Origin: Paenibacillus sp. DMB20
GTDB lineage: Bacteria; Bacillota; Bacilli; Paenibacillales; Paenibacillaceae
Assembly: GCF_000987955.1 (NCBI RefSeq)
Contig: NZ_LAZU01000051.1
Coordinates: 1-64,000 of the forward strand
Length of the DNA: 64,000 nucleotides
Direction: 5' to 3'
Position 1 is the stretch's first letter; each line of letters begins with the position of its first letter. Of this stretch, positions 31,302 through 58,577 are shown piece by piece. Below the pieces are notes generated by a model. It made no database searches, had not been told where the DNA came from, and worked only from the letters and a program-made list of their open reading frames with translations. The position numbers were made by a program, and so were the translations under genes.

Positions 31302-31310
31302 CATGCAAAT

Positions 31311-31640: not shown

Positions 31641-31641
31641 T

Positions 31642-31667: not shown

Positions 31668-31708
31668 AGGATAGATAGACTTGTTTTCGTATAAGGAGGA
31701 TGTTAATC

Positions 31709-32338: not shown

Positions 32339-32430
32339 TAAGGAACATCGGAAGATCGAGGCTCCCAATTTATAGGCACAATGCTAATGCGTTGGGATAA
32401 CCTTCTGCTTGAAAACAATAGATTCGATAG

Positions 32431-32473
32431 AAACAGCAGCAGCCGGGATTTCTTCTCGGCTGCTGCTGTTTTT
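32431..32473. terminator. bidirectional terminator between ctc and binding-protein gene
   Basis: AAACAGCAGCAGCCG and CGGCTGCTGCTGTTT pair perfectly, with A and T tracts for both convergent genes. Confidence 0.92.
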
Positions 32474-32543
32474 AACTCTCTTAAGACGACGAACGTTGCT
32501 GCTTGGCTCATTGCTTTTTTCCCGATCCCAATGATGGATTCCC

Positions 32544-33407
32544 TTACAGGGCGTTAACTCCCAGGGAGGGAGCGCCATCCCCGAAATATTTGCTCCAAAT
32601 CGCCAGGTAAGTCCCGTCCTGCTGCATCGTGCGGAGCGCGTTGTTAACAGCTGCCAACAGATCGGGGTTTCCATTCGCAACGGCTGCGCATACGTTATAG
32701 GTTTCATCCAGGGAATCGGCCGTCTTGACAGCCAGATCGGGCCTGGTCTGTTTCATGTTCAGCACGGACAGGCTGTCCGTTATTACGGCATCGACCGTTC
32801 GACGGAGGAGCAGATCGGTCGCATCCGAATAATTTCGGGCCTGAATGGTATTCGACCGATGCCGGGAAGCGATGCTCCGATATTCTCCGACGGCTTCTAC
32901 GGCGACATTTTTTCCCTTGATGTCCCGAAAGGAACGAATGTCGCGTTCGTCCGGTCTCACGACGAGAACCGGCGTGGCAGACATATATGCATCGGAGAAA
33001 TCGTACAAGCCTCTTCTCTTGGCCGTGTCCGCGACTTGATTAAAGACGGCATCGTAGGCTCCGCCAGTCAGGCCGGGCAGAAGGTCTTTCCACTGCTTTT
33101 CAACAAACACCGCCTTCATTTCCATATGTCTTGCGACTTCTTCCGCCAGCTCGACATCAAAACCTTTCAGGCTCCCATCGGCTCCGCGATAGCTGAAGGG
33201 CGGGTAATTGCCCTCCGTGCCAATCCTCAGCGTTCCGCGCAAAGAAGCATCCTGAAGAAGCCTTCCCGTATCCACCCGGTAGGGAGCTACCCCCATATTG
33301 GGTGTCGGAACCCTGTCGCGGGCCTGGTTATTGCCGCATCCGGATAAGAAGCCCAGAGCCAATGCGGCCGTCAACAGCAGTTTGCAAACCGTGGATATCC
33401 CGAACAT
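32544..33407 (-). CDS. amino-acid-type ABC substrate-binding lipoprotein (SBP family 3), orphan
   Basis: A periplasmic-binding-protein-like lipoprotein with the lipobox LGFLSGC (Cys near residue 25). The mature part is family 3: GTLRIGTEGNYPPFSYRGA, FDVELAEEVARHM, then DAVITDSLSVL, ending IWSKYFGDG. The family binds polar amino acids or related compounds. I use ATG 33407 (MFGISTVCKLLL), which has an upstream AAGGG; an in-frame ATG at 33428 lacks an RBS. No permease or ATPase genes adjoin it, so it must pair with a transporter elsewhere or serve as a sensor. The LysR gene lies just upstream on the same strand. Confidence 0.85.
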   Translation of the reverse strand: MFGISTVCKLLLTAALALGFLSGCGNNQARDRVPTPNMGVAPYRVDTGRLLQDASLRGTLRIGTEGNYPPFSYRGADGSLKGFDVELAEEVARHMEMKAVFVEKQWKDLLPGLTGGAYDAVFNQVADTAKRRGLYDFSDAYMSATPVLVVRPDERDIRSFRDIKGKNVAVEAVGEYRSIASRHRSNTIQARNYSDATDLLLRRTVDAVITDSLSVLNMKQTRPDLAVKTADSLDETYNVCAAVANGNPDLLAAVNNALRTMQQDGTYLAIWSKYFGDGAPSLGVNAL

Positions 33408-33492
33408 CTCAAAACCGTCCCTTCCCATAACGATGAATGATTGATGTAAAAGTTAGGATATCCCAAACCCGAGCATGTATTCGGAAGCGGGT

Positions 33493-34407
33493 TTATTTTT
33501 GAACGGAGCCAAGGTTGGCTGGTGTGCCGTTCTGCTGCAAATCATGAAAATAACCCGCAAGGTAATCCCTGAATTCCATGGCTGCCCTGGAAAGATATCG
33601 AGTCTCAAGCCAGGCGATATGGAAGGTTCGTTCGCATACGGGCTGTTCGATTTCCAGCTTTACCAGGGATAATTCCTCGCTGCTTTTGCATTCTCCCATA
33701 AAGGCCACGCCAAAGCCGGACCGGACCAAATCGGCGATGCTTGCGGGGTCCTCCACCTCGCAGACGACATTCGGCTCGAAGCCTGCCTGACGGCAAAACT
33801 CGTCGTTCATGATTCGTAAAGGATAGCTTTCCTTGTAGCCGACAAATGCCTCGTTTGCGGCCTCCTTCAAGTGAATGCGGGTCCGGTCGGCGAGTCTGTG
33901 CGATGGAGGGACGGCCAGATAGACCTTCTCCCGCAGCAACGGAAGCTGACGGATGCCTGGATGTTTGATCGTAATCGCGGTCAGTAAGAAATCGACCTCG
34001 TTTTCCTCGATCATCTGCTCCATTTCTTCCATCGAAGACTGAACGATATGAAAATTTACGTCCGGGTGCTGTTTAAGGAAATGCTGCAGAGGCTCCTTGA
34101 GCGATTCCAGGTTGGACAGCGCCAAGTGGATGCGTCCGTGCTCCAGCCCCGCAAGGTCGGCCAGCTCACGACGCCCCTCCTCCAGCAGCCGCAGAGCCGC
34201 CGAAGCCTTTTTCAGAAACGCTCTTCCGAACGGATTAAGCTTTATTTGCCTGGCTTGCCTGTCGAACAAAGGCACTCCCAAGTTCTCTTCCAGTCTGGCG
34301 ATGGTTTTGCTGAGTGCCGGCTGGGCGATTCGCAATTCCTCCGCGGCCTTGGTCATATGCTCAAGTCTGGCTACGGTTAGAAAATATTTAAGCTGTAGCA
34401 GTTCCAT
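33493..34407 (-). CDS. LysR-family transcriptional regulator
   Basis: A 304-residue LysR protein. The N-terminal winged helix reads LLQLKYFLTVARLEHMTKAA then ELRIAQPALSKTIARLEENLG; the effector domain follows from about residue 90. ATG 34407 follows GGGAG; the frame is open far upstream but without conserved sequence. It is divergent from the FMN-reductase remnant and the quinone oxidoreductase, and a perfect palindrome lies in between, so it probably controls them and itself. The effector is unknown. Confidence 0.9.
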   Translation of the reverse strand: MELLQLKYFLTVARLEHMTKAAEELRIAQPALSKTIARLEENLGVPLFDRQARQIKLNPFGRAFLKKASAALRLLEEGRRELADLAGLEHGRIHLALSNLESLKEPLQHFLKQHPDVNFHIVQSSMEEMEQMIEENEVDFLLTAITIKHPGIRQLPLLREKVYLAVPPSHRLADRTRIHLKEAANEAFVGYKESYPLRIMNDEFCRQAGFEPNVVCEVEDPASIADLVRSGFGVAFMGECKSSEELSLVKLEIEQPVCERTFHIAWLETRYLSRAAMEFRDYLAGYFHDLQQNGTPANLGSVQK

Positions 34408-34428
34408 TCCGATCTCCCTTCTTCTTTT

Positions 34429-34446
34429 CATATACTTAAGTATATG
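34429..34446. promoter_or_regulatory. 18-bp perfect palindrome, likely LysR operator
   Basis: CATATACTTAAGTATATG lies 22 bp upstream of the LysR start and 128 bp before the divergent reductase remnant. It contains ATAC-N4-GTAT, compatible with a LysR-type T-N11-A site. Confidence 0.5.
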
Positions 34447-34573
34447 CATATATGTCCATTTTTGTATTTTTTTATTATCTTTCTGTGATTTTAAAATGGA
34501 AGTGTGGAAAGAACAATACCTATCTCCATGTTTAACGATGAACATTCGGATTAGAAGATTACGGAGGGGTGAT

Positions 34574-34842
34574 ATGAAATTGTTGGTCATCAGCGGTAGC
34601 GCGAGAAGCCATTCCAATACGGGCGCCGTTTCGGAAATGGTCCGCCGCATGCTGGATAAGATAGGGGAAACGGTCGGAATTGACTTGGCTGCTTGAACGC
34701 TGTGGTTCAGCCGGGTCAGGTAGCGGTTGACGTGGAGCGTATAAACCGAATCAAGGGATCGATCGAGGACGCTTGTCTTCAGAGAATTGAGTCCATGCTC
34801 CGGGAGTTTGCACAGATGGCGGAGCAGCGGTCGGCAGAATAA
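34574..34842 (+). pseudogene. NADPH-dependent FMN reductase remnant with internal deletion
   Basis: ATG 34574, behind GGAGGGG, opens with the flavodoxin-like N-terminus of this family (KLLVISGSARSHSNTG) and stops at 34694-34696 after 40 codons. Immediately on, in another frame from TTG 34693, come the family's last residues (LNAVVQPGQVAVD, then RIKGSIEDACLQRIESMLRE) ending TAA 34840-34842. The middle, about 90 residues with the FMN phosphate/isoalloxazine loops (GSxPGxLKNxxDW region), is absent. This is an internal deletion, not a single-base error, so the gene should be dead. A misassembly collapse is the alternative. Confidence 0.7.
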
Positions 34843-34884
34843 CGGCAATAAGTGAGAGCCTTTACCAGAAAGGGGATGGATGTT

Positions 34885-35799
34885 ATGAAAGCTGCGGCGA
34901 TTAACGCATTTGGACCGCCGGACGTGTTGAAAATCATGGAGTTGGATCGCCCCGAGGCCGGTCCCGGTCAGGTTCGGGTAAAAGTAAAAGCGGCCGGGGT
35001 CCAGCCGTTCGACTGCGCGGTCAGGTCCAGCGGCTGGGTGCCGCCGGGATTAAAGATCCGGTTTCCGCAGATTCTGGGAAACGAATTTGCCGGCATTGTG
35101 GATCAGGTCGGTGAAGGAGTCGCGGATTTCTCAATCGGCAGCGAGGTTATGGGCTGGGCCATGTTGGCCTGTTATGCGGAATACGTGGTGGTCGGTACGG
35201 ATCAACTGGTCCGTAAACCCCAAGGGATGCCTTGGGAGGAGGCGGGGGTGCTTACGGCTTCCGGCCAGACGGCCCATACGGCACTTGAAGAGCTGGGCGT
35301 CGGTCAAGGAGATACGGTGCTGATTCATGCGGCGTCGGGCGGCGTCGGCACGATGGCCGTTCAGCTTGGGAGAGCCTGGGGGGCGACGGTGATCGGTACA
35401 GCCAGCGAATCCAATCATGAGTATCTGCGTTCCTTGGGGGCTATTCCGGTCACCTACGGGGAGGGGCTTGTCGAGAGGGTCCGCTTGCTGGCGGCTAACG
35501 GCGTGGATGCCGCCTTCGACGCTGCTGGCGATGAGGCGCTGCGCGCATCGCTCCAACTGGTCGAGAACCGGGATCGCATCGGCACCATCGTATCCTTTGA
35601 GCTGGCTTCACAGTCGGGCGTCAAATCCATCCGCAGCCAGCGCTCCGTAAGGCGCCTGAACGAGCTTGCCGAATTGTACGCAGAGGGAAAGCTGAAAATT
35701 CATGTACGGCGGACATTTCCTCTCGAACAGGCTGCGGAAGCGCATCGGGCTGTCGAAAAGGGTCATGGACGCGGAAAAATCGCTTTGGTAACCGAGTAA
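34885..35799 (+). CDS. zinc-independent quinone oxidoreductase-like MDR protein
   Basis: A medium-chain dehydrogenase/reductase of the NADPH:quinone oxidoreductase (Qor) type, 304 residues. The GroES-like half reads VLKIMELDRPEAGPGQVRVK and LGNEFAGIVDQVG, and the nucleotide fold has HAASGGVGTMAVQLGRAWG. The zinc ligands of alcohol dehydrogenases are missing, as usual for quinone reductases. I chose ATG 34885, nine bases from AAGGGG; GTG 34852 and ATG 34876 are in frame upstream. It follows the reductase remnant and may share a LysR-controlled promoter. Probable role: reduction of quinones or reactive enones. Confidence 0.87.
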   Translation: MKAAAINAFGPPDVLKIMELDRPEAGPGQVRVKVKAAGVQPFDCAVRSSGWVPPGLKIRFPQILGNEFAGIVDQVGEGVADFSIGSEVMGWAMLACYAEYVVVGTDQLVRKPQGMPWEEAGVLTASGQTAHTALEELGVGQGDTVLIHAASGGVGTMAVQLGRAWGATVIGTASESNHEYLRSLGAIPVTYGEGLVERVRLLAANGVDAAFDAAGDEALRASLQLVENRDRIGTIVSFELASQSGVKSIRSQRSVRRLNELAELYAEGKLKIHVRRTFPLEQAAEAHRAVEKGHGRGKIALVTE

Positions 35800-45056: not shown

Positions 45057-46580
45057 ATGAGGAGAAAATTACGATTCGTTTCGACAATTTTTGTAACCGC
45101 TTTCTTGATAAGCTCGGGATGTGACGTCCCGGGAAGCCTTAAAAACCGGCAGGAGCATCCCAAGTCGGAGGCGAGGTCCATCAGCATCGTCATTTCCAAT
45201 CTGGGGATGACGTTTCCTTCCGGGATGGACGAAAATGACAACCGCTACCTGAACTACATCGAGGGGCAGACGGGACTCGATATTCAGATTACGACGCCGC
45301 CAACCGAGGTGTACGACGAGAAGCTCGACGTGATCATGTCCTCCGGGAATTTGCCCGACATGCTCCATGCGTACGAACCGGTCTGGTTTGGCAACTACGC
45401 GAAGCAGGGGGCTTTTCAGCCGCTGGACGATCTTATTGATCAATACGGACCCCATCTGAAAGAAAAAATTCCTGCCGAGGCGTGGGACCGGGTAAGATAT
45501 GGCGGAAAAATATACGCCGTTCCCAGCTTGAACGAGGTTAGCGGCGTTGAGCTGATGTACGGCAGAAAGGACTGGCTTGACCGGCTCGGCCTGCAGCCGC
45601 CTAAGACGCTGAAGGAATACCGTGAAGTCATTCGCGCGTTTACCCGGGACGACCCCGACGGCAACGGCATCGATGATACGATCGGTCTAACCTTGATGAT
45701 CGATCTTGGCCGGTCGTCCCCGTTTTTCGGCGCTTTCGGAACGCAGCTGAATACGTGGTTTGAACGGGACGGAAAGTTGGTGAACGGCAGCATTTTGCCG
45801 GAGACGAAGGAAGCGTTGGCCTACCTGAACGGATTGTATGAGGAAGGTTTGCTGGACCGCGAATTTCCGCTGAATTTGCAAAATAACCTGTTTGAAAAAA
45901 TAGAGGACGGCAAGGTGGGGCTTTTTTCGGCCACCTGGTACGACACACGCGGCCCCATCGCGGCCAACAAGCTGAAGGACCCTCAAGCCGAATGGATTGC
46001 CCTACCGTATCCCACAGGACCTGAAGGGCAAAAGGGGGTATACGAAAAAGATCTGATCCGAGGTTATAACGTGATCCCGGCCGGTTCCTCCAAGGCGAAA
46101 GAGGTCATACAGTTCCTCGATTTTATCGTGAGCGATTATAAAAACTTAAAGCTTGGCTTCGAGAACGAAATATGGCGTCTTGAGAATGGAAGGATGATCA
46201 CGGATTTCAAGAAGCACGACGAGCATCTGTACAGGGGGATTTATCAAGCCCTGGTGGATGTTCCGGATCCCGTCTTATCCAAAAAACGACTGGATTCCCT
46301 GGGGGATTTTCATTTATACGACAATCTGGAAATGATCCGCCAAAACGTGATCAAGAACGGGTTCTACGGTATTCCCACGCCAGCCATGAGCAAATACGAC
46401 AAAAGGCTGGGCGAGCTTCAGGGCATTTTTACGAGCATCATCTTGGGCATTGAGCCGATCGAGTCCTTTGACCGTTTTGTGGAGCAGTGGAAGCGGGAAG
46501 GCGGCGAGGAAATAACCAAAGAGGTGAATCTGTGGTTTGAGAACGGGGGGCGGGAAGAGTTAGAGGGGGAGGAAGGATGA
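45057..46580 (+). CDS. sugar-type solute-binding lipoprotein heading a two-component operon
   Basis: An extracellular binding protein of the family 1 (LplA/YtcQ) type, about 507 residues. A short signal with lipobox LISSGC (Cys near residue 22) anchors it to the membrane. The mature part reads YLNYIEGQTGLDIQITTPPT, RKDWLDRLGLQPPKTLKEY and FFGAFGTQLNTWF. ATG 45057 lies ten bases from GAGGGAGGG; TTG 45048 is too close. Its last four bases overlap the start of the kinase gene (ATGA), so it is translationally tied to the sensor and may present the ligand to it. It could also serve the permeases downstream. Confidence 0.88.
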   Translation: MRRKLRFVSTIFVTAFLISSGCDVPGSLKNRQEHPKSEARSISIVISNLGMTFPSGMDENDNRYLNYIEGQTGLDIQITTPPTEVYDEKLDVIMSSGNLPDMLHAYEPVWFGNYAKQGAFQPLDDLIDQYGPHLKEKIPAEAWDRVRYGGKIYAVPSLNEVSGVELMYGRKDWLDRLGLQPPKTLKEYREVIRAFTRDDPDGNGIDDTIGLTLMIDLGRSSPFFGAFGTQLNTWFERDGKLVNGSILPETKEALAYLNGLYEEGLLDREFPLNLQNNLFEKIEDGKVGLFSATWYDTRGPIAANKLKDPQAEWIALPYPTGPEGQKGVYEKDLIRGYNVIPAGSSKAKEVIQFLDFIVSDYKNLKLGFENEIWRLENGRMITDFKKHDEHLYRGIYQALVDVPDPVLSKKRLDSLGDFHLYDNLEMIRQNVIKNGFYGIPTPAMSKYDKRLGELQGIFTSIILGIEPIESFDRFVEQWKREGGEEITKEVNLWFENGGREELEGEEG

Positions 46581-48409
46581 ATAACGTATTTCGCAAAATT
46601 GCAGACCGTTTTTCCCGAAACATCCAGACCAGGCTGACCGGATATATCCTGCTCATTCTTCTGCCGCTTGTCGTCATCAACCTCTTTGCCGTCGAACGGT
46701 CAAGGGACATTCTATACGAGCAGGCCGTGAAAAGAACGGAGATGGCCTTGTCTTCGGCGATGAACCACTTTGATCTGGCGCTGCAAAACGTGGAAGAAAT
46801 CTCCACGCTGATCGCGGCGGATCCGAGCCTGAACGAGCTGTTGAACAAAAACGGAGCGGATTTTTCGCCGAGGTCCATCGTTGATTTTTCCAACGTGCTT
46901 CAGCAGCTGTCCAATTCGGTGTCGGTCAACCGGTTTGTTTCGCAAATTTCCGTGTATCACCAAGCCTCCCACATGTTCATCTCGACCCATTTCGGCGGGC
47001 GGAAGCTGACATCGGAGCCTGAACAGGAATGGCTTGTGGAATCGGCCCGGAATAACGGGACGGGGATTTCGTACGTCATGGCCGATTATCCGGTGTCTGA
47101 CGCGCGGACGTTCGGCAAGCTGACGGGAACGGACAGCGTTTCCTTGATCCGTTCCATGGATTTATACAATATGGACCGCCAGTCCAATCTGCTTGTGGTC
47201 ACCTTTAACCGCAGCAAGCTGCTGAACATTCTGAAAACGCTGCTTCCGTCGGAGAACAGCCGGGTTTCTCTGTTGAATGAAAGAGGGGAGGTCATCGTCG
47301 AAACGGGGAAGGCTGCGGCAAGCGGTACCCCGTCCGCCGATGAAATGGAAGTAACGATGAACTCGGATTATTCCTCATGGAGGCTTGCGCTCGTTCAGCC
47401 GAAAAGCGAGCTTTACCGGGAGACCGACCAACTCCGCATGTTCACGTTTACGATTATCGGGATCAGCATCCTGCTCGCTTTCATTATATCGTGGGTCGTT
47501 TACAGCGGAATCGCTTCTCCCGTGCTTAAGCTTTCCCGCGGGATGAAACGTCTGAGCAGCGGCGAAATGAACGTGCGCGTAGAGACCAAAAGAAGGGATG
47601 AGTTCGGCTTCCTGATCCAGTCCTTTAACCGGATGGCATCCGTGCAAAAGCATTTGATCGAGGACCATTACGAGCAGCAGCTCAGGCTGGCAACGACGGA
47701 GCTGAAATTTTTGCAGTCCCAGATCAATCCGCATTTCTTGTACAACACCCTGGATTCCATCTATTGGACGGCCAAAAATTACGAGGCGGACGAGATCAGC
47801 GAGATGGTGATGAACCTGTCGAAGTTTTTCCGTCTCAGTCTGGATAAGGGAAGGCAGGTATTTACGATCGAAGAGAGCATCACCCACCTGCATTATTACA
47901 TTCGGATTCAACAGCTCCGCTTTCTGGACAGCTTTGAAGTCGAGTACCGGATTGCCGAAGAAACGAAGGAAATTCCGATATTGAAGCTGCTGCTTCAGCC
48001 TTTGGTGGAAAACGCGATTTTGCACGGGATGGAGGGAAAAGCGAGCGGCGGAAGCCTTATCCTATCCAGCCGGATCGAAGGAGAGCTGATCAAAATCAGC
48101 GTGGAGGACAACGGGCCCGGGATCGGGGAGGAGCGCCTGTCTTATATCCGGAACGAACTCGAACGGATGGGGTTCCGCAGTTTTCCGTCCCTGTCACAGG
48201 ACGAGGAGAACATCAAGGATTTGTTCGGCCTGCGGAATGTGATCACCCGAATGAGGCTGTACTACGGGGAAGAGGCCCGATTGACGGTGGACAGCCTGCC
48301 CGGCATGGGAACCACCGTATCCATATATATACCGCTTCATCATGCCGGACGGGATACCGGGCGCATGACACCGGTTTCGGCTTTATACGAAGGAGGACGG
48401 GGAGCATGA
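46577..48409 (+). CDS. YesM-type sensor histidine kinase
   Basis: A membrane histidine kinase of 610 residues. Helix 1 is at about 21-41, an extracellular dCache-like sensor follows, helix 2 is at about 289-311, then HAMP (312-365). The LytS/YesM-type kinase core has QSQINPHFLYNTLDS (phospho-His near 384), VENAILHGM and DNGPGIGEE. This class pairs with AraC-type regulators and sugar ABC operons in Bacillus and Paenibacillus. It overlaps the regulator gene by four bases. Confidence 0.94.
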   Translation: MNNVFRKIADRFSRNIQTRLTGYILLILLPLVVINLFAVERSRDILYEQAVKRTEMALSSAMNHFDLALQNVEEISTLIAADPSLNELLNKNGADFSPRSIVDFSNVLQQLSNSVSVNRFVSQISVYHQASHMFISTHFGGRKLTSEPEQEWLVESARNNGTGISYVMADYPVSDARTFGKLTGTDSVSLIRSMDLYNMDRQSNLLVVTFNRSKLLNILKTLLPSENSRVSLLNERGEVIVETGKAAASGTPSADEMEVTMNSDYSSWRLALVQPKSELYRETDQLRMFTFTIIGISILLAFIISWVVYSGIASPVLKLSRGMKRLSSGEMNVRVETKRRDEFGFLIQSFNRMASVQKHLIEDHYEQQLRLATTELKFLQSQINPHFLYNTLDSIYWTAKNYEADEISEMVMNLSKFFRLSLDKGRQVFTIEESITHLHYYIRIQQLRFLDSFEVEYRIAEETKEIPILKLLLQPLVENAILHGMEGKASGGSLILSSRIEGELIKISVEDNGPGIGEERLSYIRNELERMGFRSFPSLSQDEENIKDLFGLRNVITRMRLYYGEEARLTVDSLPGMGTTVSIYIPLHHAGRDTGRMTPVSALYEGGRGA

Positions 48410-50016
48410 ATTTGATCATCGTGGAAGACGAACCCAGACTGCGGAATTCGCTGGCCTACAATATACCGTGGGAAGACCATGGGATCGAGGTCGTCGGATT
48501 GGCGGCGAACGGGGTGGAGGCGCTTCGGATGGCGGAGCGAAAAATGCCCGATTTGATGCTGATCGACGTACAGATGCCGGAAATGGACGGCTTGACCCTG
48601 ATTGCCCGGTTAAAGGAAAAACAGGGCGGTAAGCGGTTTATGAAGATGATTATTTTAAGCGGCCATGACAATTTCGCCTTTGCCCAGCAAGCGATGGAGC
48701 ACGGGGTATCCCGATATTTGCTAAAGCCCGCCGGCGAGGAAGAGATCCTGAAAGCGGTGCTTGAGGCACGGGACGGGCTCCGGGAGGATTTGGAGCAGTG
48801 GAGACTTACGGCGGAGCTTGAAAGGAAGTGGAGGGACCATGTGCCGAGCCTTCAAAACCACTTCATTCTGAATTGGGTGAGCGGCAAATACGGCGAACGG
48901 GAGATCCTAAACCGGAGCAGGGAGCTGTATATGGGCCTGGAAAAGGATACGCTGCTGGCCGCAGCCGTCGTGGACTTGGATCCTCTTCCGGAACATGACG
49001 CCAGGTTTGGCCCGAACGACCGTGAACTGCTGCGGTTTACGATCCGTTGCCTGGCCGGGGAGTTGCTGTCTCACTCTTCCTGTTCGGTGTGCACGGACCC
49101 GGATTCGGACGTGCTTCTTGTGTTTCGGGCCGAGCCCGAACGAAATCCGAAGGAATTCATGCTGCATATCAATGCGTCCGTCGTCAAGCTGCTCTCCCAT
49201 GCCAAGGAAATTTTGAAGCTGACGGCAAGCGCCGGCATTTGCGGAAGGGCGGGAAGGATTGAGGAGCTGCCGCAGCTATATGCGGAAGCCTGCAGAGCCC
49301 TCCAGGAAAGAGTCGTGTACGGACAGGATATCGCCATTCCCTACCGGGAAGAAGAGAGAAGGGACAGGCCGGAAATCTCCGGGCAGCAGCACCTGGAAAA
49401 AATGCTGGAAATTGCGCTGGAGACGGCGGATGAAGCCAAAGCGGCGGAAGCCGTGGAGGGCTTATGGCAGGAGCTCTTCACCCGTACCGGGACATCGCAG
49501 CAGTTTCAGGAGGCCGTGCTGTACATGAACAGCCTGTTTATCCGGATCATGGTCAAGCAGGGCTGGAGTATTCCGGAGGTGATGGGGGAGGACTGGGCTT
49601 TTTTGCAGAACATCCATCTCCTCAACACGAAATCGCAAACGCGCTCCTGGCTGGCAAGAACCGTGAACCGTATCACGGAATATATGAAGGGACAGCGAAA
49701 AAGCAGCAGCCATCAGATCGTTCAAAAAATAGCGAGCCTCATTGAGCAGGAAATCGACCAGGATATTACGCTGCATACCATGGCCGACCGGCTGTACGTC
49801 AATTCCTCGTACCTGAGCCGGCTGTTCAAACAGGAGATGGGGATGGCTTTTTCGGCTTACGTGTTGGAACAGAAGATGGAGAGGGCTAAGCGCATCCTTC
49901 AGGAGGGGCAAAAGGTGTATGATGCCGCAAGGCAGACGGGCTACCGGGATGTCAGTTATTTTACGAAGGTGTTCCGCAAGTACTGGGGCGTCAATCCGGG
50001 GGAGTTTAAACCGTAA
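48406..50016 (+). CDS. YesN-type response regulator with AraC DNA-binding domain
   Basis: A 536-residue regulator. The receiver (residues 1-120) has acidic EDE and phospho-Asp near 54 in LIDVQMPEMDG, with Lys in YLLKPAG. A middle region of unknown fold leads to two AraC helix-turn-helix motifs (about 435-535: MADRLYVNSSYLSRLFKQEM, then AARQTGYRDVSYFTKVFRK). It should activate the ABC and SLH-glycosidase genes downstream on ligand sensing; this is inferred from family and position. Confidence 0.94.
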   Translation: MNLIIVEDEPRLRNSLAYNIPWEDHGIEVVGLAANGVEALRMAERKMPDLMLIDVQMPEMDGLTLIARLKEKQGGKRFMKMIILSGHDNFAFAQQAMEHGVSRYLLKPAGEEEILKAVLEARDGLREDLEQWRLTAELERKWRDHVPSLQNHFILNWVSGKYGEREILNRSRELYMGLEKDTLLAAAVVDLDPLPEHDARFGPNDRELLRFTIRCLAGELLSHSSCSVCTDPDSDVLLVFRAEPERNPKEFMLHINASVVKLLSHAKEILKLTASAGICGRAGRIEELPQLYAEACRALQERVVYGQDIAIPYREEERRDRPEISGQQHLEKMLEIALETADEAKAAEAVEGLWQELFTRTGTSQQFQEAVLYMNSLFIRIMVKQGWSIPEVMGEDWAFLQNIHLLNTKSQTRSWLARTVNRITEYMKGQRKSSSHQIVQKIASLIEQEIDQDITLHTMADRLYVNSSYLSRLFKQEMGMAFSAYVLEQKMERAKRILQEGQKVYDAARQTGYRDVSYFTKVFRKYWGVNPGEFKP

Positions 50017-50115
50017 GGAAGGCTCATCCCAGCGGCCGCTTGAAGAAATAAGAGAGGCATACGAAACAGATCAGACATTACATAGCAATTCTGCACCATC
50101 GAATAAGACGTAGTT

Positions 50116-50158
50116 AAGGCATCCTCCGGTTGTTCGCAAACCGGAAGCGATGCCTTCT
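50116..50158 (+). terminator. terminator of the sensor operon
   Basis: AAGGCATC...CTCCGGTT pairs with AACCGGA...GATGCCTT, a two-part stem with an internal loop, followed by CTTAG. It separates lipoprotein-kinase-regulator from the permease operon. Confidence 0.7.
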
Positions 50159-50286
50159 TAGCATGCGCCAAAGGAGCATCAAATTACCACAAACAGTAAT
50201 GATTGTCGTCTACCGGGCTTTTAAGTCCCGCTTTACAATTTTAGGTATCGAAGTAACGGTTCTCATTCATCAGAGGGGGGAATTGC

Positions 50287-51246
50287 ATGAAGCCAGGATC
50301 GAAGAAACTGCCCGTACCCGGACTGAGCCGCCGCGGATATTTTCCGTCGCTGTGGAGCGATATACGGAAGGAATGGGATTTGTATTTGCTGCTGGTCCCG
50401 GGAATTTTGTTTATTCTGCTGTTTAAGTATACGCCCATGTACGGCATTACGATCGCGTTTAAGGATTTCAACATCTTTACCGGCTTTGCGGATAGCCCAT
50501 GGGTCGGATGGAAGCATTTTGAGAAGCTGTTTACCTCCCCGGACTTCGCGCTGGTATTTCAAAATACCGTCATCATCAGCCTGCTGAAAATCATCATCCT
50601 GTTCCCGCTGCCGATCATCGTGGCATTGATGCTGAACGAGATGAAAAACATGATTTTCAAGCGCTCGGTGCAGACTGTCATTTACCTGCCGCATTTTCTG
50701 TCCTGGGTCATCGTGAGCGGCTTGTTCATTGATCTGTTGTCGACGAACGGCGGTTTGGTGAACAAGCTGCTGGTATCGCTCAACCTGGAGCCGATCGCTT
50801 TCTTTCTGGATAACAGCGTGTTCCGGAGCGTCCTCGTCACCTCGGCCGGATGGAAGGAAACCGGGTGGAGCACGATCGTGTACCTTGCCGCTTTCAGCAT
50901 GATCGATCCGACGCTGTACGAAGCGGCTAAAATCGACGGTGCAGGCAAATGGAAACAGCTGTGGCATATTACGCTTCCCGGTATCGCGCCGATTATCATT
51001 CTGATGTTTATCCTGCGTCTCGGGAGCATTTTGGAAGCGGGAACGGAGCAAATCCTGGTCATGTACAACCCGGTGGTGTACAAAGTTTCGGATGTCATCG
51101 GCACGTACGTGTACAGGCAGGGCCTCGGCAACCAGGATTACAGCTTCACGACAGCGGTAGGTCTTTTCGAAGCCGTGATTTCGTTTACGCTCGTGATCGT
51201 CGGCAACTCGCTCAGCAAAAAATACCTGCAGCGGGGAATCTGGTAA
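50287..51246 (+). CDS. sugar ABC transporter permease (LplB type)
   Basis: A 319-residue permease with six hydrophobic segments and the EAA loop EAAKIDGAGKWKQLWHITLP. The N-terminus (WDLYLLLVPGILFILLFKYTP) is typical of the LplB/YtcP carbohydrate subfamily. RBS GGGGGG precedes ATG 50287. With the next two genes it forms a permease-permease-lipoprotein unit lacking an ATPase gene, which in this family is supplied by a shared MsmX-type ATPase. Confidence 0.94.
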   Translation: MKPGSKKLPVPGLSRRGYFPSLWSDIRKEWDLYLLLVPGILFILLFKYTPMYGITIAFKDFNIFTGFADSPWVGWKHFEKLFTSPDFALVFQNTVIISLLKIIILFPLPIIVALMLNEMKNMIFKRSVQTVIYLPHFLSWVIVSGLFIDLLSTNGGLVNKLLVSLNLEPIAFFLDNSVFRSVLVTSAGWKETGWSTIVYLAAFSMIDPTLYEAAKIDGAGKWKQLWHITLPGIAPIIILMFILRLGSILEAGTEQILVMYNPVVYKVSDVIGTYVYRQGLGNQDYSFTTAVGLFEAVISFTLVIVGNSLSKKYLQRGIW

Positions 51247-51261
51247 AGGAGGGAGAGCGCC

Positions 51262-52186
51262 ATGAAACAGGATCTTGATTTAAAAAACCATTTCCGCCGG
51301 CGTAGGCGTGAACTCCATCAAACCTTCCGCAGGAGAGAAAGTTTTTGCGGCATTCAATTACTGCGTTTTCATCCTGATCGGGATTACGACATTGGTTCCT
51401 TTCATTAATTTATTGGCAAAATCCCTCAGCAGCGAGGAGGCGGTTGTATCCGGACGCGTCGGCCTTTTCCCGGTCGGCGTTCAATTTGAAACCTACAAAT
51501 ACGTGCTGCAGGACTCGATGTTTCTGACTTCCCTGAAGACGTCCGTGCTGCTGACGGTGATCGGAACGGGGCTCAGCCTGATCATGACCACGATGACCGC
51601 TTATCCGCTTTCTAAAATTCGGCTGCGCGGGAGAAAATGGCTGCTGCTCATGTTTGTGTTCACGATGTTGTTCAGCGGCGGCTTGATCCCGACGTATCTG
51701 CTTATGCACAATCTGAATCTGGTCAACACGCTGCCGGTTTTGTTTTTGCCCGCCATGGTAAACGTTTTCAATATGCTGATCATCAAAAACTACTTCGAGG
51801 GGCTACCGGATTCGCTGGAGGAATCCGCCAAGCTGGACGGCGCAGGCAACATCCGGATTTTGATCCATATCATGCTCCCGCTTTCCCTGCCGGTCCTTGC
51901 CACGATCGCATTGTTTTTTGCGGTAGCTTTCTGGAACGATTATTTTGCCGCCATGATTTACATTACCGATCCGGAGCTTAAGCCGCTCCAATTGTACCTG
52001 AAGGAGCTGATCGTTTCTTCCAGCGGGGATTTTTTGAAAAACAACGTGGATGCGGCCATCAATATGACTCCGCAGTCGATTCAAGCGTCCTCCATTCTGC
52101 TCGCGACCATTCCGATTTTGCTGGTGTACCCCTTCCTGCAGAAATATTTCGTCAAAGGCGTGCTGGTCGGCTCGGTCAAGGGCTGA
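51262..52186 (+). CDS. sugar ABC transporter permease (LplC type), frameshift near start
   Basis: The partner permease, about 307 residues with six helices and the loop EESAKLDGAGNIRILIHIML. ATG 51262 follows AAAGGAGGG. One extra A in the A6 run (51282-51287) throws the first codons out of frame; corrected, the N-terminus is MKQDLDLKTISAGVGVNSIK. Without correction the first usable ATG is 51308, which has no RBS. It starts 15 bases after the LplB-type gene. Confidence 0.92.
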
Positions 52187-52277
52187 AGAAGGGGAAAGAT
52201 CATTCCACAAAGGCGGTGATGCCCCGCTTATACAAGGGTTCGGTTTAAAGGTTATCCCATTCCAAGGAGGTTATCGT

Positions 52278-53787
52278 ATGAGAAAAAAATCGGCAATGCT
52301 TGCCGCGTTTCTGGGTCTGAGCCTGGCGGTGTCCGGCTGCGGCGGGGGAGCTTCGAAGCCGGAGTCGCCGGGAGCGGCTCCTTCAGAGGGACCGAAGGGA
52401 GGAGACGCCAACAAGGAGATCCGCATGATCATGCAGTACGGGCTGTTTGATCCGGCCAAGGAATACACGAGCCAGTACATTAACGAGAAGACGGGATACA
52501 ACGTCGAGTACGAAATGCTCCCGGCGGAAAAAGCGAATGAAAAGCTGAATCTGCTCGTGGCCAACAAGGAAAGCTTTGACGTGATGAAGCTGAATTCCGA
52601 GCAATTCTACAATCTCGCGACATCGGGCGCGCTGGAGCCGATCGACGATCTGCTCGCCGCCCACGGCAATCACATCAACCAGGCGATCAAACCGGAATCG
52701 TGGGGCAGCGCGACCATCGACGGCAAAAAGTACGCCATTCCGGAAACGGGGGCGGGCGTGAGCGTCGGCGAGGAACTGGTCGTCCGACAGGATTGGCTGG
52801 ATGAACTGGGGTTATCCATTCCGACAACGACGGATGAGCTGTACAACGTGCTGAAAACGATCAAGGAAAAGAAAAACATCATTCCGCTTACTGGTAGCAA
52901 AGACTCCGTCTACGGCGATATTGCGTACGGTGACATAGCGGCAACGTTCGGAATACTTACAGACTGGAAAGAAGTTGACGGCAAGCTGGTGCATAAGGCC
53001 GAGCAGCCGGAAATGAAAGAATTCCTGGCCTTTATGAACAAACTGTATAAGGAAGGGCTGCTGGATACGGAGATGCCGATCAACACGGCGCAAAAAGCGA
53101 TCGAGAAATTCGCAAGCGGCAAGGCAGCCGTTTACAAGCTGGCCTGGTGGAACGCGGGCAGCACGATTTCGGCGCTGAATCAAAACTTCCCGGATGCCAA
53201 GGTATCTGTGATCCCATATCTGAAAGGGAAGGATGGGAAAGCCGTCGTTGGAGCCGACACGAAAACCAGCTGGTTCATTGCCATCCCGAAGTCATCCAAA
53301 AATAAAGAGGAGGCGATGAAATTTTTGAACGCGAAGCTGGAGCCAGAGACGTTCAAAGGCCTGGCCATCGGTACGGAAGGTGTTCACCATGAGGTGAAGG
53401 ACGGCAAATATTATCCGATTCTTCCGAAATTCAATGATGATTTGGGCAATGCCAGCGCCTTTGTAACCGGTGTTGACGAGGAGAAATATCCGATTTATTG
53501 GCAGGCACGTGTACGGAAGGATCCGATTGTTCAGAATTATTTTGAGACGTTCCAGAAAAATGCCGAGGGCATTATCGTCATTGATCCGATGTCCAAGGCA
53601 CCCCCGATCAATGCCGTTTCGAAAAATACGCTGAAGCTCAGAACGCTGCTTAACGATAACATGCTGAAATTCATCAGCGGTTCCGAGCCGTTGGAAAACT
53701 ACGATAAATTCCTGGAGCAGTGGCGTGCGGAAGGCGGAGCCGATATGGTAAAGGCCGCAAACGAGTGGTATCAGACGAAAAAAATAA
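52278..53787 (+). CDS. sugar-binding lipoprotein (LplA type)
   Basis: The second family 1 binding protein of the locus, about 502 residues, with lipobox LAVSGC (Cys near residue 21) and a Gly/Ser/Pro-rich linker. Mature features are QYGLFDPAKEYTSQYINEKT, VRQDWLDELGLSIPTTTDEL and FLEQWRAEGGADMVKAANEW near the end. RBS AAGGAGG precedes ATG 52278. The open frame runs on to 53849 only because the A7 run at 53778-53784 has one extra A; with six As the protein ends QTKK at TAA 53785-53787, just before a terminator. Confidence 0.92.
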
Positions 53788-53800
53788 TAGGAGGTTTTAC

Positions 53801-53830
53801 GAGCAGCTTGCGTTCGCGGCTGCTTTTTTT
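53801..53830 (+). terminator. terminator after the LplA-type gene
   Basis: GAGCAGC and GCTGCTT form a stem closed by TTGCGTTCGCG, followed by a T7 run. It lies inside the uncorrected reading frame, evidence that the frame there is false. Confidence 0.75.
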
Positions 53831-53863
53831 CCAAAAAAAATTCCGATGAAAGGTGGTTATGTG

Positions 53864-56800
53864 ATGAAGCTGAATCTCCGAAGACGTATGGCTGCTTTGC
53901 TGAGCGTTGCCCTGATCATCTCTTCGGTGACCCTGGGGACGCCGGCGGCAGTAGCCGGCGATCCCGATACGGGAGGCCAGGGAAGTCCCTCGGCTGCTGC
54001 TGCCGACCCTGTAACCTTGGTTTCCCAAGATGAGCATACCGTTCTGGAATTTACGGATATCAACCCCGGGGAGGAAGCGTTGTCCCAAAAATCCGGTTAT
54101 CTGGCTTTGTTCACGCACGGAGCCCGAGTAACGGCTGACGTGTACGATAACGACGTGCTTATCCGGGAGCAGACCGTGGCTCTCGTGGTGGATGCCGCCG
54201 GCGTGGTGCAGAAAAAACACGGGCCCGACGGCGATCCGCCCAATGCGTGGGATACGGAGGAAAATGCCGCGATTCCGGAAGGCGGCTATATCGTTCTTGC
54301 CGGCGACGGCTCGTGGGACGATTCCGGATACCGGAAGCCGCTGTTCCTGCATTATGAAGCCGGGGACCGGATCAAGTTGAAACGCGGCGGCGTCGAGGTG
54401 ACCGCGGCGGATTTTCTGACGCAGACGCCGGGGCCGAATCCGGATCCCGAACCCGAGCCTGAGCCTGGGGAGAAACCAGAACTCGTGCTGAATACCCCGC
54501 CCGACACGACGGTAACCATCCCGCTGGTGGAGGTATCCGGCTACGTGAAAAACTACATGGAGGATAAAGCAATGCGAGTTACGGTCAATGACAAGGAGGC
54601 ACCCCTTACGGCCAGCGGAAGCTTCAAGCTGAATGTTTACCTGCATCCGGGGCCGAATGCGGTGACGGTCCGGCTGTGGGAGGGCGAAGCCGAGCAGGCT
54701 TCCGTTACCCTGAATGCCGTCTATGATACGGCGGGCCAGATCGAGGATTATATCGAGGTGGAGGCCGCGCCGGCCGATATCACGATCGGCATTGAAGGAC
54801 CGCGCAAAAAGCTGGACTTTATCGACAAGGACGTCACCGGAATCGAAAATATTATAGCCCTATACACCCGCGATTATGGTCCTTCGCTGCTTGTGCCCAA
54901 GTATAACGTGGCGGTTCTGGTAGACGGAAACAACCGGGTCGTCCAGGTGGTCAATCCGTCCGTGGGCGGAAAGCCGCCGGTCTGGACGGGACCGACCGAG
55001 CTTACGATCCCCGAGGACGGGTATGTGCTCATGGCCCAGGATAACAGCTATGCGGGCAATGACATCAAGCGTTTCCTGGCCGAAAAATTCAAGGTCGGCG
55101 ACATGATCAAGCTGCGCAAGAACGGGGAAGTCGTCGCTATAAGGGATTTGAGAAGCGGCTTTATTGCCAGGCTGAAGCTCGAAAATCCGCCGATGTACAC
55201 GGTTACCGATTCCCAAACGGATATCAAGGGGATGATTGAAAATATCGACGATCCGTCGGCCATCGAACTGACGGTAAATGACGCGGAGGTCCCTTTTGCT
55301 CCCGACGGCTCCTTTTCCTATTCGTATCCGCTGCAAACAGGAACGAATTATGTGGATGTTAAGGTGCTGAAGCGCGGCAAGGAGCAGGACGCGAGGAGTC
55401 TTGCGATATTCAACCGTCCCGGATTTTCAACGCAGAAGGATGTTATTTTGTGGGTGGACCAGGCGGCCAACGCGAGAAAGTTCCAAACCAGCGACCATGT
55501 GCGGGATTTTCTGGAGCAGGCGAAAAAAAGCGGGAGTCACCTCCATCGTGCTCGACGTCAAGGGAGTGGAAGGCTTCGTCTCCTACAAAAAGAACGATTT
55601 GACCGGACGTCCGTACGTGAGCGAGATCAAAGCGCCGCAAAAAGCCGGAGCCAATCCCGATCTGGATCTGCTGCAGGAATTCATTACGCACGGCCACTCG
55701 CTGGGTCTAAAAATCCATGCGGCGATCAATGATTTTGCGGAAGGGTCCATCGCTCACCAGGAATTCGCCGTCCTGAACGATCATCTGGATTGGGAAGAGC
55801 GGGTTCATTTTGCGGAAAACAACGGGGAGATCAAGCGCCTCCGGGAAAGCGCCAAGCAGGGGTTGGTCGCCTTCGTCAACCCTTCGAACGATGAAGTCCG
55901 GCAGTATCAGCTCAAAACGTTTGAAGAAATCATTAAAAACTATCAGGTCGACGGCGTCGTCCACGACAGGGGACGGTATGACAACGAGGGCGCCGATTTC
56001 AGCGACGAAACGAGGGCCAAGTTCGAGCAGTTTCTTCAGGCGAGAGGCAAGCAGCTGGTCAATTGGCCGAACGACGTTTTTTACTACGATCAGTCGGTTC
56101 GCGTGTATGGACCGCTGATTCAGGACTGGTGGGAGTTCCGTTCGGCTACGATCCAGAGCTTTTTCGGGGAAGTGAAAAGCCTCGTCGACGCTTATGAAGC
56201 CTCTACCGGAAGATCCATACAGGTATCATCTTATGTCGGCTCCTGGTATGAAACGTATTATTTGAACGGCGTGAACTGGGGCAGCAAAAACTTCCGTTTC
56301 GATCCCCGGCTGGGGATGCCGGATGAATCGGTTTATACGCCGGCGTATTACGATACGGGGTACATTGAATATTTGGATTTTCTGATGATCGGTGCCTATC
56401 AAACCACAAGCAGCGAGGTCAAAAAGTACATTACCCTCGGAAATATCGTGACCAACGGGGAAATTCCGCTGTATGCGGGCATCGCCTTGAATAACGTGCA
56501 GGAACCGGCCATGCAGCGCGAGGTGTTTCAGGCCGGCCTCAGCAGCACGAATGGCCTGATGCTGTTTGACGCCTCGCAGGTGAACTGGCCCGTCATCACG
56601 GCATCGCTTCAGGATAAGGAATGGGTCAAGGACTACCAGCTCGGCATGAGCCTTCCGGGAAATCCGAACGGCTTCCTGGAAGGAGACTTCTATAACGTCA
56701 ACCGCGTAGAGGGCAACATCAACGTCATGACGGACGCCTTCGGATATTCCACGGGGACGAACCGTTTCGGCGTGGAGGTGGTCGTGAACGCCTCCGGCGA

Positions 56801-58577
56801 AGTTGAGCATGTGGCTAACCGGGAGCAGGCGATCCGGTGGAACTGGGGATCGCCGGAGGAGAATAACAGCGTGATCCCGCAGGGCGGTTTTGTCATTTCC
56901 ACGGTGGATCCTTCCGGCGTGCGCACCAAACGCCAGCTTGTGGCGAATGCCTACAACAAGGGAGACCAGGTTCGATCGGCCGTCCTCGGCGGGCTGCTGG
57001 ACGATGATGGGAAGAAGGTTGCGGATAACCGGGTCAAGGTAGAGGGACGCGCTGAAGCGCTCGGTCCCGGAAAGGTTGAAGTGCGGTTTAACGGCCAGAA
57101 GGCCGACGTGAAGACGAACGGGGAATTTTCCGCCGTTATCCCGCTTTCTCCGGGAGCCAATACGGTCGCGTTCGAGGTGTACGTGGATGGGCTGAAAACC
57201 AACGGCAAAACGATCGAGATGACGCGGACGACGGGAGGGGATAACGGAGGCGAACCAGGCAATCCGGGCGGCCCCGGCAATCCCGGGAATCCGGGCAGTC
57301 CCGGTAATCCTGGGAATCCTGGGAACCCTGGAAAGCCGTCCGCTCCCGAACGGATCAAGCTGGCCAAAGAAACTGGTCCGGATGGGCGTACCCTTGTCCG
57401 TGCCGATGTCCAGCTTGAACCGATGCTGCAGGAGCTGGAGAGGTTAGCGAAAGAAAACGCGAAGACGCCCGAGCTGGTTTATGCGGTAAAAGAAGCTTCG
57501 GACACGGTGGAGTTGAGCCTGCCGACCGGCGGATTGCGTACGGCGCTGCAGAAAGTTCCAACCGGGACGCTTGTCTTGGAGACCCTGTCCGGCCGTCTGG
57601 ATTTGCCGCTTGCTTCCTTGAAGGCGGAATTATCGAAGAAACCGGATGCCGAGCTGCTCGTGGTCAGCATCGGCAGGCTTACCGAAGCCGAGGCGTCAGG
57701 TTTGAAGGCCCGGTTGTCCAAGGAGGGCACGGCAAAGCTGCTAGCCTCCGTCAAGGTTCGTTTTGCGCTGAGCAAAGGGCAGAAATCGGAGGAGCTGTCC
57801 CGTTTCAAACAGGGATATGCCGTGCTGACGCTGCCGGTTAACGGAACGGATGAGCCGGGGCATGCCGGGGCCTTCGGATATAGGCTCCCTCAGGATCAGC
57901 TTTCCTTTATTCCGGCTGTCATGTCCGGATCCAAAGAGGGAAGTCTTGCCAAGTTGAGACTGTCCGTCGGCGGAATACTGGCGATTGCGCAGAGGGAGAA
58001 GATTTTTCAGGATCTGAAGGGACACTGGGCCGTCCGGGAGATCGAAGAACTTGCCTCCAAGGGATTGGTCCAAGGGGTAAGTGGAGACGTATTCGCCCCG
58101 AACCGGCCGGTGACCCGGGCGGAGTTTACGTCCCTGCTCGTTCGGGCACTAGGGCTCGACGAAACGGCGTCGAATGAATCCGGGTTCAGCGACGTGCACG
58201 GGGACGACTGGTTTGCCGGAGCGGTCACGGCCGCCGCGGCCTCAGGGCTCATTGACGGCTACCGGAACGGAGAGTTCCGTCCGGACGAAAGCATTACGCG
58301 GGAGCAGATAAGTCTTCTGCTGGCCCGCGGCATGGAATTTGCGGGAGGCAAGCTGGAAACGGGCGGGGCGGCCGCGGAAATTCTGGACCGGTTTAAAGAT
58401 GCCGAAGCCATCGCTTCCTGGTCCGGGCCGGCCGTCGCTGCGGCAGTGCAATCCGGGCTGATGCAGGGGCGCTCTTCCGGTCATTTTGCCCCGGACGCCC
58501 CTTCGACACGCGCCGAAGCAGCTGTCGTGCTGAAGCGATTGTTGCAGCTTGCCGGATATACAAACAACCAGGAATAA
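53864..58577 (+). CDS. S-layer-anchored GHL10-domain protein with triplicated flanking modules, frameshifted
   Basis: A giant exported protein, about 1570 residues. A signal peptide (1-32, ending AVAG) is followed by module X1 (about 55-185), an Ig-like unit (205-290), X2 (300-430), a second Ig-like unit (445-515), a glycosyl-hydrolase-like 10 domain (about 520-930: ILWVDQAANARKF, IVLDVKGVEGFVSYKK, GLKIHAAINDF, VVHDRGRYDNEGADF), X3 (940-1045), a third Ig-like unit (1055-1115), a Gly-Asn-Pro collagen-like linker (1127-1160), a 200-residue domain of unknown type, and three SLH repeats (about 1380-1570: FQDLKGHWAVREIEELASKG). ATG 53864 follows AAAGGTGG. One extra A in the A7 run (55523-55529) breaks it; corrected, AKKAGVTSIVLDV. 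It probably degrades or holds a surface polysaccharide imported by the ABC genes upstream. Confidence 0.9.

What the first reader, a model, noticed from the sequence alone, without database searches (positions are those of the whole stretch)
53864..58577. GHL10 surface protein with a triplicated, unrecognised module
A module of about 100-130 residues recurs three times (near 54030-54410, 54770-55160, 56690-56990). Each copy has a beta-rich body, an IPEGGY/IPEDGY/IPQGGF motif and a GDxI/GDQV end, and each is followed by an Ig-like unit with a VNDKEAP/VNDAEVP/FNGQKAD core and a PGxN or TGTN turn. The order is X-Ig-X-Ig-GHL10-X-Ig-linker-SLH. The X module may bind the polysaccharide that GHL10 acts on. 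I do not recognise it as a named domain.
Basis: partly seen in the sequence, partly recalled or inferred. Interest (0 to 1): 0.55.

Follow-up and report, generated by a model that had tools for sequence, protein, structure and literature searches.

The report
Glycosidase with borrowed phosphodiesterase insert module
A cell-surface sugar-cutting enzyme of Paenibacillus carries three copies of a module that is not new: the same fold sits inside another class of bacterial sugar-phosphate-cutting enzymes and is visible in two published crystal structures, although the domain databases searched do not name it and its job is unknown.

Summary
Observation confirmed. The gene at 53864-58577 has three X-Ig pairs in the order stated (X1 54092-54415, X2 54845-55141, X3 56709-56981). 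A profile of X2-Ig2 copies alone finds the window's X1-Ig1 at E 8e-31 and X3 at 9e-8. The 'Ig' is a named domain, Glucodextran_B (PF09136). X matched no Pfam or NCBIfam family, but it is recognisable: it is the domain inserted in bacterial NAGPA-type phosphodiester glycosidases. Profile-profile probability is 99.2%. The AlphaFold model of X2 matches the corresponding stretches of 5H3K (Z 11.8) and 6OZD (Z 10.1). Of 40 other X-bearing proteins that I picked, 30 carry NAGPA, 9 GHL10 and 1 is a false hit. X may be a glycan-positioning domain; that is inferred, not shown. The GHL10 barrel of an intact relative matches Cwp19 (Z 31) and PgaB (Z 28), both amino-sugar-polymer enzymes. ABC-transporter genes lie near the gene in 47 of 78 relatives, which hints at uptake of the products.

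The parts
53864..55732 (+). first open frame from the likely start ATG: signal peptide, X1, Ig1, X2, Ig2 and the first part of the GHL10 barrel, then out of frame
55401..58577 (+). second open frame: GHL10 barrel (in frame after the A7 run), X3, Ig3, linker, SLH
53864..53959 (+). probable signal peptide (by eye from the translation, not tested)
54092..54415 (+). X1
   Evidence: profile match E 4.3e-25; found by the X2-only profile at iE 2e-11
54476..54694 (+). Ig1 = Glucodextran_B PF09136
   Evidence: best of two stretches, E 1.8e-15 for the first-frame protein
54746..55141 (+). X2 (profile part 54845-55141; the modelled domain starts about 54746)
55196..55399 (+). Ig2 = Glucodextran_B
   Evidence: E 1e-6, 29 bits against cut-off 27; model matches 1UG9 690-774, Z 11.4
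55436..56618 (+). GHL10 TIM barrel (ends transferred by me from the model of the relative L130)
   Evidence: PF02638; L130 model residues 232-624 match Cwp19, Z 31.0
55523..55529 (+). run of seven A at which the reading frame changes; X2 and barrel core are in one open frame in 78 of 78 relatives
56709..56981 (+). X3
   Evidence: E 1.4e-28; found by the X2-only profile at iE 2e-4 and by the X2-Ig2-only profile at 9.1e-8
57006..57227 (+). Ig3 = Glucodextran_B (just under the cut-off in the window; the relative L130 has three matched stretches)
57249..57338 (+). Gly/Pro/Asn-rich linker
   Evidence: weak Collagen match only, E 0.05
57996..58532 (+). three SLH repeats
   Evidence: E 8.6e-41; match to S-layer protein Sap 6BT4, E 7.4e-13
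50287..53849 (+). neighbouring ABC transporter: two permeases and a solute-binding protein, 14 bases between its stop and the start codon
46577..50016 (+). sensor kinase and AraC-type response regulator upstream

Best explanation
The gene encodes (or encoded; the frame is broken in this assembly) a secreted, SLH-anchored GHL10 glycoside hydrolase whose barrel is flanked by X-Ig cassettes. SHOWN by sequence and predicted structure: X is homologous to the roughly 100-residue beta domain inserted in the catalytic domain of bacterial NAGPA phosphodiester glycosidases, seen in 5H3K (Synechocystis Slr0280) and 6OZD (Burkholderia); the Ig is Glucodextran_B; the barrel is closest to Cwp19 and PgaB. 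INFERRED: the SLH repeats hold the enzyme at the cell wall; the barrel cuts an amino-sugar-containing wall or matrix glycan; the X domains help hold or position that glycan beside the catalytic groove, and the Ig domains act as spacers; released oligosaccharides may be taken up by the ABC transporter encoded next door. X would do for the barrel what the insert does inside NAGPA enzymes (itself unknown), that is extend the substrate-binding surface.
For: Homology of X to the NAGPA insert: hhalign of A1 (20 X copies, all from GHL10-type proteins; L047 was judged by its likeness to L048, not scanned) against A5 (24 of the 30 NAGPA proteins) gives probability 99.2, E 2.2e-19 over 75 columns; the X2-Ig2/X3-Ig3 family A3 gives 98.3, E 2.4e-14. 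phmmer of the NAGPA protein L097 against the PDB aligns the insert with 5H3K and, in part, 6OZD, while 3OHG, 6U11 and animal NAGPA (6PKU) have only 6-9 residues between the flanking pieces, the first of which score near zero bits, so that gap is indicative. Structure: X2-Ig2 model pLDDT 93.1; residues 1-127 match 5H3K 386-487, Z 11.8, rmsd 2.7, 99 aligned, and 6OZD 283-414, Z 10.1, rmsd 2.5, 101 aligned; the other listed rows fall on the Ig part or on ranges that end in it. Context: 30 of 40 picked X-bearing proteins carry NAGPA and 9 carry GHL10. X is inserted in the GHL10 barrel itself in L050 and L095, between HPEW and F/YVNP, which by the L130 model and the Cwp19 alignment is between beta3 and alpha3; in PgaB that loop carries the important Tyr432 (PMC5765458, passages). 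Barrel: Cwp19 Z 31.0, PgaB Z 27.9 (on L130); GHL10 of Cwp19 degrades peptidoglycan (PMC6016235, passages). Both permeases and the solute-binding protein in 47 of 78 relatives (my identity and length thresholds). A tryptophan in a loop absent from the NAGPA copies is kept in X2 (65 of 68) and X3 (63 of 63 without gap) and in 27 of 37 X1 copies.
Against: No tool tested binding or catalysis. The most conserved X residues (P, G, GD) look structural. The Trp loop is also absent from the X copies of other GHL10 proteins (L025, L047, L048), so it cannot be a general feature of X. The Asp196 that the Cwp19 authors favour as catalytic aligns with an Arg in 68 of 68 relatives (the neighbouring Asp195 is conserved), so activity like Cwp19's cannot be assumed. 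31 of 78 relatives lack at least one of the three transporter genes within the flanks held. The frame break makes the window copy itself possibly non-functional. Foldseek's top row for the X2-Ig2 model was a fibronectin pair (3PDD) with rmsd 13.5, not 5H3K. A direct profile search of the PDB ranked 6OZD only third at E 0.4 and did not list 5H3K.
Confidence: 0.6

Rival explanations
1. X is a rigid structural spacer or folding platform without a ligand: it packs on the catalytic domain and sets its distance from the wall, and conservation reflects the fold only.
For: Near-invariant X residues are Pro/Gly, an Ile and the G of a GD turn; in the window family X comes with a spacer-like Ig; the 828-residue model of X2-Ig2-barrel-X3-Ig3 has pTM 0.79, compatible with a fixed arrangement.
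Against: The family-specific loop Trp is kept in X2 and X3 and mostly in X1; X is inserted in catalytic domains of two different folds, which would be unusual for a mere spacer.
Confidence: 0.25
2. X binds the cell's own wall polymer and anchors or positions the enzyme, as an addition to the SLH repeats, rather than feeding substrate to the barrel.
For: SLH repeats point to surface anchoring; X copies occur in other proteins with SLH beside NAGPA (L104, L105, L115, L127).
Against: X also occurs inside catalytic domains, and in proteins for which the Pfam scans listed only NAGPA (L097, L100-L103); proteins with SLH hardly need a second anchor.
Confidence: 0.2
3. X is a separately evolved Ig/lamin-tail-like beta domain (LTD, PF00932) that only resembles the NAGPA insert.
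For: 10 of 119 members match LTD weakly, best E 0.0057; the IPxGGY motif resembles one of LTD (recalled).
Against: Profile match to the NAGPA insert is E 2.2e-19 and the fold match covers most of X.
Confidence: 0.05
4. The window copy is a pseudogene or carries a sequencing error, so a full-length product may not be made from it (not exclusive of the other readings, which concern the family).
For: Frame change at an A7 run; 78 of 78 relatives keep X2 and barrel core in one open frame; genome contamination 9.32%.
Against: Both halves are otherwise open, and the barrel is 95% identical to that of two intact relatives (one of them again), so any break is recent or technical.
Confidence: 0.5

Closest known systems
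Insert domain of bacterial NAGPA phosphodiester glycosidases (5H3K Slr0280 residues 386-487; 6OZD BPSS2145 residues 283-414)
   Same: profile-profile homology to the NAGPA insert and same fold over about 100 residues
   Different: in the window X stands outside a NAGPA domain, is paired with Glucodextran_B, and has a longer loop with a conserved Trp before IPxGGY
GHL10 (PF02638), solved in Cwp19 (5OQ2/5OQ3)
   Same: barrel fold (Z 31.0 on the relative L130), gathering score passed, Cwp19 also wall-anchored
   Different: Asp196 of Cwp19 is Arg here; anchoring by SLH instead of CWB2; flanked by X-Ig cassettes
PgaB C-terminal domain (GH153)
   Same: next-best barrel match after Cwp19, Z 27.9; acts on a GlcN/GlcNAc polymer (PMC5933820, passages)
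   Different: 12% identity over the aligned residues; export enzyme of Gram-negatives; X was not looked for in it
Glucodextran_B (PF09136; 1UG9 domain)
   Same: Pfam match in 116 of 119 X-Ig segments at E 0.1 or better and fold match Z 11.4
   Different: here directly behind an X
Tandem-X GHL10 proteins (for example the 1117-aa protein of the same genome, L090:1774-5124)
   Same: X copies plus GHL10
   Different: four X in tandem before the barrel, no Glucodextran_B listed, Cadherin-like end, no SLH listed

Membership tests
NAGPA insert (X) module | sequence-profile homology to the insert of NAGPA proteins | tested here: met
   hhalign 99.2%, 98.3%
NAGPA insert (X) module | fold of the insert in 5H3K/6OZD | tested here: met
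   Z 11.8 and 10.1 over 99 and 101 residues, predicted model
NAGPA insert (X) module | location inside a NAGPA catalytic domain | tested here: not met
   no PF09992 match listed for the window protein at E 1
NAGPA phosphodiester glycosidase (PF09992) | catalytic core domain present | tested here: not met
   the protein is therefore not filed as NAGPA
GHL10 (PF02638) | gathering score | tested here: met
   38.3 bits against 27.9
GHL10 (PF02638) | TIM-barrel fold as in Cwp19 | tested here: met
   Z 31.0, 303 aligned, on the relative L130
GHL10 (PF02638) | Asp196 of Cwp19 (proposed catalytic residue, not necessarily a family-wide feature) | tested here: not met
   Arg in 68 of 68 relatives aligned (68 of 80 candidate regions were given to the alignment); Asp195 equivalent kept in 68 of 68
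GHL10 (PF02638) | glycan cleavage | not testable with these tools
   needs an assay
Glucodextran_B (PF09136) | gathering score for the three Ig units | tested here: met
   copies 1 and 2 pass; copy 3 has 26.5 against 27 in the window, while the relative L130 has three matched stretches
SLH surface proteins | three SLH repeats | tested here: met
   three stretches, E 8.6e-41
Known carbohydrate-binding module (CBM) | match of X to a CBM family | tested here: inconclusive
   no CBM among the Pfam families listed (one search shows 25 of 48); CAZy itself not available
Lamin tail domain (PF00932) | significant match | tested here: inconclusive
   10 of 119 members, best E 0.0057

The most novel reading that the evidence does not exclude
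X is a portable substrate-gripping domain that has been inserted into or attached beside two unrelated catalytic folds (NAGPA and GHL10 TIM barrel), and its presence marks enzymes that act on the same class of glycan, probably a phosphate- or amino-sugar-containing wall or matrix polymer; the GHL10-X proteins would then be a new type of wall-polymer scavenging system with a dedicated ABC importer.
Probability: 0.25. Interest if true: 0.55.

Novelty: new variant of a known kind. Interest (0 to 1): 0.36.

Why it matters
A domain found in 99 of 299 sampled genomes of the phylum and in two solved structures has no match of its own in Pfam or NCBIfam. Linking it across two enzyme classes gives a testable hint that both act on related glycans, and would let annotators stop calling it unknown. 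For this locus the finding is otherwise ordinary: a surface glycosidase with relatives in dozens of Paenibacillus genomes.

Tried and rejected
Programmed frameshifting at 55523-55529: rejected, because 78 of 78 relatives have X2 and barrel core in one open frame, and the 15 closest relatives of the family search (L003-L017) have single open frames of 1337-1590 aa around the barrel. X as a named domain: no match in Pfam or NCBIfam; PHROGs and PADLOC were not searched. X as a lamin-tail domain: weak only. An X-like hit in the M23 peptidase L093 (genome E 0.057) lies on the M23 domain and is counted as false; the hit in L092 is also weak (genome E 0.032) but lies in a NAGPA protein (where only its first 616 residues were scanned). 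A direct PDB search with the X profile gave three hits at E 0.27-0.4; one (6OZD) was later supported by fold, the other two (2DB8, 9P4U) were not followed. The small E-values were set aside because its profile probably contained X1 and X3 copies; one search repeats the test with X2-Ig2 segments only. Whether contig C37 is foreign: window 28919-35799 has its longest matches in genus g1 genomes at 66-69% identity and only short ones in one of three g9 genomes, while 45.0-60.6 kb is 84-90% identical to two g9 genomes and has only short, weaker matches in two g1 genomes; a stretch of another contig, C19, matches one g9 genome at 73% and three g1 genomes by short pieces; left unresolved. Literature: searches for Slr0280, the PDB codes, BPSS2145, SLH with Glucodextran_B and GHL10, NAGPA or phosphodiester glycosidase terms, Cwp19/PgaB, and NAGPA with GHL10/DUF2233/DUF187/YngK listed no paper whose title or abstract start deals with this module; only open-licence papers are held, so this does not show that nothing is in print. 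Papers were seen as passages (with abstract parts), none in full: PMC6016235, PMC5765458, PMC5933820, PMC12288456, PMC11188070, PMC12786226, PMC12341915 (the last only for a reference-list title on Slr0280). The 40 X-bearing proteins were picked by me from the lists (best hits plus some weaker ones), not at random.
Full report
The observation. The gene at 53864-58577 really holds three copies of a module X, each followed by an Ig-like domain, in the order X1-Ig1-X2-Ig2-GHL10-X3-Ig3-linker-SLH. Profile A1 places the copies at 54092-54415, 54845-55141 and 56709-56981, but it contains them. As an independent test, a profile made only of the X2 copies of the window gene and 12 relatives found X1 at 4.7e-15 to 4.5e-9 and X3 at 2.4e-7 to 5.6e-4 in 15 relatives, against 160 ORFs. 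With 78 loci from named genomes, a profile of 81 X2-Ig2 segments alone found the window's X1-Ig1 at 8.3e-31, X3 at 9.1e-8 and Ig3 at 2.1e-4, and in 80 ORFs of relatives 25 full-length X1-Ig1 pairs (2.8e-40 to 3.6e-23) and 20 full-length X3-Ig3 pairs (7.3e-18 to 8.5e-12). With the broader profile, which probably contained such copies and is used here only to find them, 28 of 80 ORFs hold three full-length pairs, 47 two and 5 one. So the X-Ig pair is the unit of duplication, and X2-Ig2-GHL10-X3-Ig3 is the usual core.

The coordinates contain two overlapping open frames, 53720-55732 and 55401-58577. The frame changes at a run of seven A, 55523-55529. All 78 fetched relatives have X2 and the barrel core in one open frame, and the 15 closest relatives in a search of 197 genomes of the family (L003-L017) show single open frames of 1337-1590 aa around the barrel. 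This is a recent lesion or a sequencing error, not a conserved frameshift signal.

The named parts. The Ig unit is Glucodextran_B, PF09136: E 1.8e-15 for the first-frame protein, 116 of 119 X-Ig segments match at E 0.1 or better, and the model matches glucodextranase 1UG9 690-774 with Z 11.4. X itself has no Pfam or NCBIfam match, apart from weak ones such as LTD in 10 of 119 members.

What X is. An iterated profile first showed X in tandem before the GHL10 barrel of other proteins (L047-L049), and once inside a barrel (L025, the same gene as in L050). Used on 299 genomes of the phylum, the 20-row profile A1 hit 99 at E 1e-3 or better. I fetched 40 of the places by choice, 4 of them from the window's own genome, and scanned all 40 proteins: 30 carry the phosphodiester glycosidase domain NAGPA (PF09992), 9 carry GHL10, and one is an M23 peptidase where the hit is false. 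In the NAGPA proteins X sits inside the catalytic domain. When the NAGPA protein L097 is compared with solved chains, 5H3K (Slr0280) aligns through X and 6OZD over part of it, while 3OHG, 6U11 and animal NAGPA (6PKU) have only 6-9 residues between the two matched pieces; the first of these pieces scores near zero bits, so the gap is indicative. The Pfam matches to NAGPA usually begin inside X (for example L096: X 297-366; NAGPA 318-491), so part of X seems to be folded into that Pfam model.

Two independent tests agree. Profile against profile, X copies taken only from GHL10-type proteins match 24 of the 30 NAGPA proteins with probability 99.2 and E 2.2e-19 over 75 columns; the X-Ig segments of the window family alone give 98.3. 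By structure, the AlphaFold2 model of window X2-Ig2 (119 sequences, pLDDT 93.1, pTM 0.74) matches 5H3K 386-487 with Z 11.8 (rmsd 2.7, 99 aligned) and 6OZD 283-414 with Z 10.1 (rmsd 2.5, 101 aligned) over model residues 1-127. Allowing for different residue numbering, these are the stretches that the sequence comparison calls X. Foldseek alone put 5H3K second, behind a two-domain fibronectin match with rmsd 13.5, and the A1 profile against PDB sequences gave 6OZD only at E 0.4, third of three hits.

The enzyme. The model of the intact relative L130 (X2 to Ig3, 828 residues, pLDDT 90.1, pTM 0.79) has its barrel closest to Cwp19 (Z 31.0) and PgaB (Z 27.9). Cwp19's GHL10 domain degrades peptidoglycan (PMC6016235, passages), PgaB's cuts deacetylated PNAG (PMC5933820, passages), and the E. 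coli hydrolase DigH (recalled to be a GHL10 protein; the passages do not name the family) is specific for denuded glycans (PMC12288456, abstract and passages). This points to an amino-sugar polymer as substrate. Against a simple transfer: Asp196, favoured as catalytic in Cwp19 (PMC5765458, passages), aligns with Arg in 68 of 68 relatives, while the neighbouring Asp is invariant (residue numbers of Cwp19 were mapped by me with an offset of 5, which fits Asp195-Asp196-Tyr197).

How X may work. Its places are telling: inserted in NAGPA catalytic domains, inserted in the GHL10 barrel of L050 and L095 between HPEW and F/YVNP, in tandem before barrels, and on both sides of the barrel here. By the strands of the L130 model and the Cwp19 alignment the insertion point lies between beta3 and alpha3, the loop that carries a residue important in PgaB. 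I infer that X extends the substrate-binding surface. In this family a longer loop, absent from the NAGPA copies and from the X copies of L025, L047 and L048, holds a Trp kept in X2 (65 of 68) and X3 (63 of 63 without gap) and in 27 of 37 X1 copies; 8 of the other 10 lacked the motif used to place it. This is the best candidate contact, but it is untested, and X could be only a spacer.

Surroundings. Upstream lie a sensor kinase, an AraC-type regulator, two permeases and a solute-binding protein whose stop is 14 bases before the start codon; downstream on the other strand is an FAD oxidoreductase. All three transporter genes pass my identity and length thresholds within the fetched flanks in 47 of 78 relatives; the solute-binding protein gene passes in 49, in 29 of them on the same strand and with both permeases, and the FAD gene in 39. 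Flanks are 6 kb at most, so these are lower bounds. The arrangement hints at uptake of released oligosaccharides.

Verdict. The repeat is real. The module is not unknown: it is the unnamed insert domain of NAGPA phosphodiester glycosidases, here joined to Glucodextran_B and carried by a wall-anchored GHL10 enzyme with many relatives in Paenibacillus. Its role in substrate binding is plausible but unproven.

Noticed in passing
55523-55529: Reading frame of the surface glycosidase gene changes at a run of seven A; none of 78 relatives shows a break between X2 and barrel core.
   Followed up: yes
   Followed up: partly
L090:1774-5124 (G000:C19:328273-331623): Same genome has a 1117-aa GHL10 protein with four tandem X copies and a Cadherin-like end.
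   Followed up: partly
46577-53849: Two-component system and ABC transporter lie upstream of the glycosidase gene; the transporter is near it in 47 of 78 relatives.
   Followed up: partly
57340-57990: Stretch between the Gly/Pro linker and SLH has no significant Pfam match.
   Followed up: no
NAGPA proteins among L091-L129: Pfam NAGPA (PF09992) matches usually begin inside X, so the Pfam model seems to include the second half of an insert that animal NAGPA lacks.
   Followed up: partly
55151-55177: Just behind X2 the window protein lacks two residues that the 12 relatives aligned have.
   Followed up: no
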